This document shows, in pieces, positions 1 through 3,095 of a DNA stretch of 64,000 bases (its first letter is position 1; every line of letters begins with the position of its first letter). The position numbers and the translations under genes are program-made. Source of the stretch: Gemmatimonadota bacterium. GTDB lineage: Bacteria > Gemmatimonadota > Gemmatimonadetes > Gemmatimonadales > Gemmatimonadaceae. A model generated the notes under the pieces. The model saw only the letters and a program-made list of their open reading frames with translations. It made no database searches and was not told where the DNA came from. The DNA lies in contig JACQBG010000026.1 of the NCBI GenBank assembly GCA_016194585.1, forward strand, positions 1 through 64,000, read 5' to 3'.

Positions 1-49
1 GCGCGTAGCCGTATAACGCAGCTTGCTGCCGACGAGCGCGGGTGCGGTA

Positions 50-106
50 GCGGTTGCGGGGCCACTGCTCCACTTCATGAAAGGACGGCAGTGGCCCCAC
101 AACCGC
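50..106. repeat. long imperfect inverted repeat (hairpin)
   Basis: Arms 50-68 and 88-106 pair over 19 bp with a single mismatch (57 against 99); the 19-nt loop contains the palindrome TTCATGAA. There is no T-run after either arm, so a classical terminator is not supported. It lies 37 bp outside the left inverted repeat of the IS element and could be a structured insertion target, a REP-like palindrome or a terminator of an upstream gene that is not in the window. Only the pairing itself is seen. Confidence 0.6.
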
Positions 107-142
107 ATTTCATGGGAGCGCTCGCAGCAGAAGCAAACGTTG

Positions 143-152
143 ATATGACTGG
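143..152 (+). repeat. left subterminal inverted repeat of the IS
   Basis: ATATGACTGG, exact reverse complement of 1625-1634. In transposase orientation this is the downstream (right) end. Confidence 0.7.
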
Positions 153-392
153 AAGATTGTCAAGCACTCATTAGACGGCGAGCGAGCAGAGGTCCGGCGG
201 TGCCGGTGGCGGCTTCGACGATGAATCCTGCTGATATACGCCGATCAGCGGATCGCTCCGCCGGCGCGGCAAGAATTGGATTCGTCTGGAGCGGACTCGT
301 TCTAGGCGCGGAGATGCCGCGATCGGTTGCGGCCTCCATAACGAAGGCGAGCGTCCTCCTGTCGTGCCACCGGACACCGACGGACCGTCCGT
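153..392 (-). ncRNA. candidate guide (bridge/seek) RNA region of the IS
   Basis: These 240 nt between the transposase stop and the end repeat hold no convincing gene. In IS1111-type elements the guide RNA is reported to lie downstream of the transposase, which is this position. Short stems are visible: ACGGAC/GTCCGT at 380-392 immediately after the transposase stop, and GCTGAT/ATCAGC at 230-235/244-249. I could not assign target- or donor-binding loops, so transcript limits and function are inferred from position. Confidence 0.35.
158..163 (-). promoter_or_regulatory. outward-facing -35 box at the IS end
   Basis: A perfect TTGACA on the minus strand reads out of the element, ending 5 nt before the inverted repeat. 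No matching -10 lies downstream in the linear flank. At the opposite end TAGAAA (1640-1635, minus strand) would fall about 17-19 nt away if the ends joined in a circle. Junction promoters of this kind are known for IS110-family circles; the assignment here is inferred. Confidence 0.35.
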
Positions 393-1520
393 TCATGCGG
401 CGACGGCCTGCGGGTCAAGGTCCTGCATGACGGCCCAGAGAAATCCGACGAGCTCCCGCGCGACGGCGACCACGGCGATCTGCGGTTTGGTGCGCGCCGC
501 GAGGCGGCGATAGAGTGTGTGCAGTCGATGCTGCGCTTTCCAGGCGTGCGCGATCACCACGGGCGACTGGCCGCGTTGTCGCGCCTTGAGGGCGATGCCG
601 ATCTTCGGTTGATACCGGTACGCCCACCCCGCCTGCACGAGCACGTGACGACAGTGACTGTTCCCGGCTTTCGTGAGGGAGCCCCGTCGCTCGCGGTCGC
701 CCGACGAGTGCTCGCGCGGCACGAGCCCGAGATACGCCATCAGCTGCCGCGGTGACTGGAAGCGGCGCCAATCGACGAGCTCGGTGGCAAGCACCATCGC
801 GGCGTGCAGCTGCACACCGCGGAAGCACTGGAGACGCTGCACCGCGTCGGCCACCGGCGGCGTCAGCGCGAGCGCCGCGAGCTGACGGTCGAGTTCGTCG
901 CGGCGCGACAGCTTGTATTCGAGGAGCCCGAGATACTCGCCGAAGACGCGGCGATCTTCCGGCGCGAGCGGCGAGCGGACGCTCGCCAGCTGCCGGAGCC
1001 ATTCGTAGTGCGCCTGGCGCCACGGCGTGCCCTCGCGATAGACGAAGCCGCGCCGGGCGAGGAACTTGAGAATGTAGTGTCGGCTCCGCAGCACCTCGCG
1101 CTGAAACGTCTCGCGACAGCGCACGACGTCGCGCACGCGCTCCTCCGCCTCGGAGGGGATGCGCACCACGGTGAGCTCCCCGGCGCGATAGAGCCGCGCG
1201 AGCTGGATGGCGTCGTGCTTGTCGTGCTTGCGCTGGTGGCCGGGCTTCGTCGGGATCAACGAAGGCGCGATCACGTCGCACGCGATGCCCCACGTCGCCA
1301 TCGCGCGGTGGATCACGTAGCCGGCGCCGCTCGCTTCGTAGCAGGCGTGGACCTCGCCCTGCGCGCGGAGCCGCTCGCAGAATCGCTTGAGTTTCGCTAA
1401 ATCATTGGGGAGGCGTTCGACGCGGGTGGGCGCAATTGCGCCACCGGGGAGCACCGCGATGGTGACGGACTCCTTGTGCACGTCGAGGCCGAGGTAGATC
1501 GTTGTCGCAGCAGATGACAT
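393..1520 (-). CDS. IS110-family transposase (375 aa)
   Basis: RNA-guided DNA recombinase of the IS element. The N-terminal RuvC-like DEDD domain begins with YLGLDVHKES (Asp13), followed by YEASG (Glu62) and HDKHDAIQLARL (Asp100, Asp103). The C-terminal transposase_20 domain holds the block RGSLTKAGN (Ser281 region), which carries the catalytic serine in this family. The ATG at 1520 starts MSSAATTIYLGLDV; an upstream in-frame ATG at 1574 would add 18 residues unlike the family. All acidic residues expected of DEDD are present and the frame is intact, so it looks active. Confidence 0.93.
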   Translation of the reverse strand: MSSAATTIYLGLDVHKESVTIAVLPGGAIAPTRVERLPNDLAKLKRFCERLRAQGEVHACYEASGAGYVIHRAMATWGIACDVIAPSLIPTKPGHQRKHDKHDAIQLARLYRAGELTVVRIPSEAEERVRDVVRCRETFQREVLRSRHYILKFLARRGFVYREGTPWRQAHYEWLRQLASVRSPLAPEDRRVFGEYLGLLEYKLSRRDELDRQLAALALTPPVADAVQRLQCFRGVQLHAAMVLATELVDWRRFQSPRQLMAYLGLVPREHSSGDRERRGSLTKAGNSHCRHVLVQAGWAYRYQPKIGIALKARQRGQSPVVIAHAWKAQHRLHTLYRRLAARTKPQIAVVAVARELVGFLWAVMQDLDPQAVAA

Positions 1521-1624
1521 GGGCTGGTCTTCGCGAAGGGGCGACCGCTGGTGCGTCGCCGGTGGCTCTGGCAACTCCGACTCATCTCGTGAGGAGCTAA
1601 CCCACGCGAAAGCCGGAGGCCAGC

Positions 1625-1634
1625 CCAGTCATAT
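1625..1634 (-). repeat. right subterminal inverted repeat of the IS
   Basis: CCAGTCATAT, exact reverse complement of 143-152. In transposase orientation this is the upstream (left) end, about 104 nt before the start codon. Confidence 0.7.
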
Positions 1635-1652
1635 TTTCTAGCCCGACCTGGA

Positions 1653-2732: not shown

Positions 2733-3095
2733 CGTCAATCGGCGAGTCGCGTGAACATTCAGGAGGCGTCGGCGTCAGCGTTGCCGTTCGCCGAAAACAC
2801 GTTCGACCTCGTCACGGCCGTCGAAACACATTTCTCGTGGCAGGATCTGAGTGGAGGCATGCGAGAGGCACTGCGTGTGTTGAAGCCGGGCGGCCGCATG
2901 GCCGCGATCGCGGAAATCTACAACGGCGGGAAGCACGCCAAGTATGCCGACCGATTGGCACAGTGGACGACGATGGCGGTTCTCGACGTCGCCCAGCACA
3001 GGGCGATGTTCGCGGACGCTGGCTTCGCCCAGATCGCCGTTGACGAAGACGTGCGCAGAGGATGGATCTGTGTGCTGGGCACAAAGCCGCAGTGA
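2733..3095 (+). pseudogene. 5'-truncated SAM-dependent methyltransferase
   Basis: Encodes only the C-terminal half of a class I methyltransferase: LPFAENTFDLVTAVETHF (post-motif II region), LRVLKPGGRM (motif III), then YNGGKHAKYADRLAQWTT and RRGWICVLGTKP, typical of small UbiE-like methyltransferases of about 210-230 aa. The glycine-rich SAM-binding motif I is missing. The homologous frame can be followed upstream only to a TAA at 2730. A GTG at 2751 could start translation, but the product would lack the cofactor site. Confidence 0.75.

What the first reader, a model, noticed from the sequence alone, without database searches (positions are those of the whole stretch)
143..1634. IS1111-type element with subterminal repeats beside a structured locus
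A 10-bp exact inverted repeat encloses an intact IS110-family transposase, defining an element of about 1.5 kb. The repeats place it in the IS1111 subgroup, whose members choose targets by guide RNA. The transposase keeps all DEDD acids and the serine block, so this may be an active, programmable recombinase from a little-sampled phylum.
Basis: partly seen in the sequence, partly recalled or inferred. Interest (0 to 1): 0.6.

Follow-up and report, generated by a model that had tools for sequence, protein, structure and literature searches.

The report
RNA-guided jumping gene inside integron site
This is a 1.5-kb jumping gene (IS1111 type) from a bacterium of the phylum Gemmatimonadota that has landed exactly inside the recombination site of an integron gene cassette, and comparison with its relatives shows that a small RNA it encodes picks the landing site; the kind of element is known, but this lineage gives unusually clear natural evidence of how the RNA chooses targets.

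Summary
The 10-bp inverted repeat and intact IS110-superfamily transposase are there; the true ends are 142-1639 (or equally 141-1638; 1498 bp). About 20 relatives in Gemmatimonadota share the same ends. The 'structured locus' is the left part of an integron attC site (11-141): the element sits inside the attC R' core (empty site ACGT/TAGCC). A related genome with about 50 attC sites holds four copies, three identical, each in an attC, beside uninterrupted copies of the same cassette. Downstream of the transposase lies a 155-nt RNA of two covarying hairpins (215-369, minus strand). Its first loop carries segments matching each element's own right flank (19 elements: 93/114 matches against 44 +/- 6 shuffled; 17 held-out copies: 64/102 against 38 +/- 5) and, more weakly, the left flank; its second loop copies the element's own right end, including three variant ends. 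Guide order and RNA position are those of the IS1111 group. So: an RNA-guided, attC-targeting IS1111-type element in a phylum where I found no such report; a new member of a known kind. The window copy is single, its own guide fits its site only modestly, and activity is unproven.

The parts
11..141 (+). left part of an integron attC site: R'' GTATAAC 11-17, L'' GCTTGCTGC, L' GCAGCAGAAGC 124-134, R' GTT 139-141 cut by the element
   Evidence: same type as about 50 attCs of genome G073; folds as attC; identical 141 bases at end of contig C13 continue as GTTAGACC
142..1639 (-). IS1111-type insertion sequence, 1498 bp (141-1638 is equivalent)
   Evidence: ends from relatives and from occupied/empty cassette comparison in G073
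144..152 (-). right-end subterminal inverted repeat (TATGACTGG as read on +)
1625..1633 (-). left-end subterminal inverted repeat
393..1520 (-). tnp: DEDD transposase/recombinase, 375 aa from ATG (ORF open from TTG at 1574)
215..369 (-). guide (bridge/seek) RNA, two hairpins
   Evidence: alignment; covariation; model R1
288..359 (-). target-binding hairpin
339..346 (-). right target guide CUUCGUUA (CGUUA = 339-343 pairs with TAACG of the attC core)
303..307 (-). left target guide GCCUA
217..286 (-). donor-binding hairpin
232..238 (-). donor guide UAUAUCA, copy of the right end CATATCA
158..163 (-). conserved TTGACA near the right end, possible -35 of a circle-junction promoter (inference)
   Evidence: conserved in nearly all relatives; role inferred from ISEc11 (PMC11187229)
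1639..1644 (+). remainder of the attC R' core, TAGCCC

Best explanation
An IS1111-group insertion sequence that has inserted, in the orientation shared by its relatives and without target duplication, into the R' core of an integron attC site (ACGT/TAGCC). The transposase (DEDD/RuvC plus serine domain) is guided by a 155-nt RNA encoded between the end of tnp and the right end. [quoted passage not shown] the second hairpin loop pairs with the element's own right end. Expected cycle: excision as a circle and RNA-guided integration at another matching attC core. Shown here: ends, target, RNA structure, guide/target and guide/end covariation. Inferred from published IS1111/IS110 work: the circle, pairing inside the protein complex, catalysis.
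For: Same ends in about 20 relatives. attC identity of the left flank. G073: four copies in four attCs, three identical, with uninterrupted cassette copies beside them. Copies in G241, G212, G306 and G252 in attC-type hairpins; integron integrase near the copies in G241, G306 and G073. RNA structure covariation 88% paired against 33-41% slid. Right guide 93/114 own-target matches against 43.8 +/- 6.1 shuffled, replicated on 17 copies not used before, 64/102 against 38.4 +/- 4.7. Left guide 50/102 against 37.3 +/- 4.2. Donor triplet agrees in 39 of 41, with GCA, ACA and CGA variants. Close transposases with different guides and different targets.
Against: The window copy's own match is modest (5 bases right, 3 left). 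Two relatives (L020, L023) carry a guide that fits neither right flank. Left-end donor guide not resolved. Shuffle tests do not correct for kinship. No integrase or attC array in the binned genome.
Confidence: 0.88

Rival explanations
1. The transposase recognises the folded attC hairpin itself (structure-led targeting, as class C-attC group II introns are said to do), and the RNA plays no part in the choice of target.
For: The target is a strongly folding site and several copies share it.
Against: Relatives with the same RNA framework sit in unrelated sites, and their guides match those sites; L013, inside the attC group of the tree, has guide ACACUA and flank TA-GTGTAG.
Confidence: 0.05
2. 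The window copy is a dead or drifting relic: inserted long ago, guide since mutated, no longer mobile.
For: Single copy; right guide fits its own site over only 5 bases; right repeat is shorter than in relatives.
Against: Intact ORF with all catalytic residues, intact RNA with the best model score of all, intact ends; a relative has three identical copies.
Confidence: 0.3
3. It belongs to the classical IS110 group and the repeat is incidental.
For: Transposase length (375 aa) is above the 330-350 aa range given for IS1111 and within the 345-385 aa of the ISEc21 cluster of IS110 (PMC11187229).
Against: Repeats of 9-14 bp at the same place in about 20 relatives, RNA downstream of tnp, right-then-left guide order, GL-P----SG motif.
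Confidence: 0.05

Closest known systems
IS1111-attC elements (ISKpn4, ISPst6, ISPa25, ISPa21; [quoted passage not shown]
   Same: IS1111 layout, target at one end of attC sites, RNA downstream of tnp
   Different: Host phylum; best plasmid-borne relatives share at most about 44% identity; exact insertion base and clade could not be compared because reference sequences were not at hand
seekRNA of ISEc11, ISKpn4, ISPa11 (PMC11187229)
   Same: RNA downstream of tnp; segment pairing with the top strand lies 5' of the one pairing with the bottom strand; natural redirection among close relatives
   Different: Target sequence; a donor-end segment is supported here by covariation, which the passages I read do not describe
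IS621 bridge RNA (IS110 group; PMC11208160)
   Same: Two-loop RNA with target and donor loops; the core dinucleotide is read by both target guides
   Different: RNA downstream instead of upstream of tnp, guide order reversed, long subterminal repeats, core TA instead of CT

Membership tests
IS110 superfamily (DEDD recombinases) | N-terminal DEDD/RuvC domain and C-terminal Transposase_20 domain with catalytic serine | tested here: met
   Pfam above cut-off; residues invariant
IS1111 group | subterminal inverted repeats of sufficient length | tested here: met
   9-10 bp here, up to 14 bp in relatives; published usual length 11-13 bp, range 7-17
IS1111 group | asymmetric extensions, 7 bp left and 3 bp right | tested here: inconclusive
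   TAGAAAA (7) and TCA (3) are conserved outside the repeats, but the empty-site comparison shows that the TA is also in the target, giving 5-6 and 2-3
IS1111 group | non-coding RNA region downstream of tnp | tested here: met
IS1111 group | top-strand-pairing guide 5' of bottom-strand-pairing guide | tested here: met
IS1111 group | transposase 330-350 aa with GL-P----S(t)G motif | tested here: inconclusive
   motif GLVPREHSSG present; length 375 aa is longer
IS1111 group | transposase clusters with IS1111 references | not tested
   no ISfinder reference set at hand
IS1111-attC group | orientation-specific insertion into attC | tested here: met
   window and several relatives
IS1111-attC group | transposase nested among ISKpn4, ISPst6, ISPa25 | not tested
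   sequences not available with these tools
classical IS110 group | RNA upstream of tnp, no or very short repeats | tested here: not met

The most novel reading that the evidence does not exclude
In Gemmatimonadota a separate IS1111 lineage has specialised on integron attC sites by tuning its RNA guides to the host's attC cores (GCAUA where the attCs read GTTATGC, GUCUA where they read GTTAGAC), and its donor loop reads the element's own right end, so that both target and end of an IS1111 element are RNA-recognised.
Probability: 0.45. Interest if true: 0.6.

Novelty: new member of a known kind. Interest (0 to 1): 0.48.

Why it matters
Programmable IS110/IS1111 recombinases are sought as genome-editing tools. 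This lineage supplies about 40 natural RNA/target pairs, including near-identical transposases aimed at different sites, which locates the guide positions by comparison alone and makes the role of the donor loop in IS1111 directly testable. It also shows attC-specific jumping genes in the chromosomal integrons of Gemmatimonadota, where the integron integrase is common (155 of 395 genomes).

Tried and rejected
The whole genome was not available as a file, so it was searched instead. A generic attC scan of the window gave only chance-like hits; the site was identified from relatives. Rfam: no match. tRNA: none in the window. Plasmids: no close relative, and ISKpn4/ISPa21 could not be retrieved, so clade membership stayed open. 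The window's attC has no match in plasmids. Right flank: the small HHH gene at 1653-1877 has relatives in ordinary chromosomal surroundings, so it is not shown to be a cassette. A guide for the left end was looked for by eye; not convincing. The duplex-energy control for attC-like hairpins did not discriminate well in this GC-rich DNA, so attC identity rests on homology to the G073 arrays. L068 was fetched for its ISSso6 transposase and turned out to lie on a Shigella virulence plasmid; it was not used.

Full report
OBSERVATION. The exact repeat ATATGACTGG (143-152) / CCAGTCATAT (1625-1634) encloses one long ORF on the minus strand (393-1574; first ATG at 1520, 375 aa). The protein carries DEDD_Tnp_IS110 and Transposase_20 above cut-off; D31, E80, D118, D121 and S290-S291-G292 are invariant among 21 relatives, and the context GLVPREHSSG fits the GL-P----SG motif given for IS1111 transposases (PMC11187229). 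It is the only IS110-type transposase in the binned 3.34-Mb genome.

ENDS. Relatives at 60-76% identity occur in Gemmatimonadota (record titles; 28 of 395 phylum genomes at E <= 1e-60). In nearly all the element reads TAGAAxx-TATGACTGG (or TATGGAAGG) at the left and CCAGTCATA-TCA at the right, in transposase orientation, the 7-bp / 3-bp layout described for IS1111. In genome G073 the cassette start GTTATGCGGCAGGGTCCGAG occurs many times uninterrupted, and once split by the element: ACACGT + TGC...ACTTC + TATGCGG. Hence no duplication and one ambiguous base; the window element is 142-1639 or 141-1638.

TARGET. The 141 bases before the element are identical to the end of contig C13 of the same genome, where they run on as GTTAGACC; an overlap of exactly 141 bases looks like an assembler k-mer, so the two contigs branch at a repeated site (inference). 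Window 11-141 has the anatomy of an integron attC: R'' GTATAAC, L'' GCTTGCTGC, a long stem, L' GCAGCAGAAGC, R' GTT(AGCC). It is of the same type as about 50 attCs found in G073. Its bottom strand folds into the expected hairpin with unpaired bases in the L box. In G073 four copies sit in four attCs, three byte-identical over 1533 bp, which points to recent movement in that species. Copies in G241, G212, G306 and G252 also sit in attC-type hairpins. The integron integrase model matches about 3.5 kb from the copy in G241, about 2 kb in G306 and about 22 kb in G073. In the window's own genome neither the integrase nor further attCs of this type are binned, so the integron itself is not seen.

GUIDE RNA. 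The region between the tnp stop and the right end aligns across 21 elements in conserved blocks. A two-hairpin structure is supported by covariation: 88.2% of cells paired against 33-41% with the partner slid, 19 pairs with changes on both sides. In the first hairpin the 5' loop strand ends in UA(U), and the bases before it complement the element's own right flank: CTACACTA with TAGTGTAG (L018), ACCCCCCTA with TAGGGGGGT (L022), GCTAGCTA with TAGCTAGC (L026), TCAATCTA with TAGATTGA (L030), GCACACGTTA with TAACGTGTGC (G073). Over 19 elements 93 of 114 positions match, against 43.8 +/- 6.1 when flanks are shuffled. A covariance model built from these found further copies (43 of 395 genomes); in 17 copies not used before, with the register fixed, 64 of 102 match against 38.4 +/- 4.7. 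The 3' loop strand matches the left flank more weakly (50/102 against 37.3 +/- 4.2, p = 0.002). Kinship is not corrected for in these tests, but very close transposases (L022, L038) carry different guides that match different targets. In the second hairpin the strand UAUAUCA repeats the right end CATATCA; the terminal triplets agree in 39 of 41 elements, including GCA, ACA and CGA variants. The opposite strand (AAUUCUUG) should read the left end but does not fit well.

TREE. On a tree of 25 transposases the elements with the attC guide CGUUA fall in one ten-row group (support 89/93, open), together with one member that has switched guide and target (L013).

HOW IT WORKS. Best supported: an RNA-guided recombinase whose RNA pairs with both strands of the attC core around a shared TA, with the right end read by the second loop. 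Circle formation and strand exchange are taken from published IS1111 and IS110 work (PMC11187229, PMC11208160), not shown here. A conserved TTGACA lies 17 bases inside the right end (158-163); joined to the left end TAGAAA it could form the junction promoter described for ISEc11 (inference). By splitting the R' core the insertion probably hinders cassette exchange at this site, as proposed for ISPa21 (PMC11616780).

LIMITS. The window copy's own fit is modest: CGUUA (5) right and CUA (3) left, essentially the invariant part of the attC core. Two relatives (L020, L023) share a guide that matches neither right flank. No expression or movement was tested.

KNOWN OR NEW. IS1111 elements that target attC are known (PMC11187229, PMC11616780, PMC11089894), and integrons in Gemmatimonadota are known (PMC8618304). 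I found no report of attC-targeting IS1111 elements in this phylum, in an open-access library only. It is a new member of a known kind, with an unusually good natural data set for the guide code.

Noticed in passing
window 1-141 and L004 (contig C13 end): The two contigs share exactly 141 bases at their ends, then diverge after GTT; probably an assembly-graph branch at a repeated attC, or strain variation.
   Followed up: partly
L054-L058 (genome G073): About 50 attC sites in four stretches of the chromosome, many in tandem copies of one 269-bp cassette; large chromosomal integron arrays in a 3.1-Mb genome.
   Followed up: partly
L020 and L023: Two elements share one right guide (ACUGCUA) that matches neither of their right flanks; unexplained.
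   Followed up: no
window 2751-3095: Reading frame with only the second half of a Methyltransf_11 domain, apparently truncated.
   Followed up: no
L022, L038, L020, L023: Very similar transposases with different guides, a natural case of retargeting by guide replacement.
   Followed up: partly
L012 (G016:C22) and L109 (G016:C26): One contig ends inside an element's left end and another begins beside a second copy, so copies of this family probably break assemblies and are undercounted.
   Followed up: no
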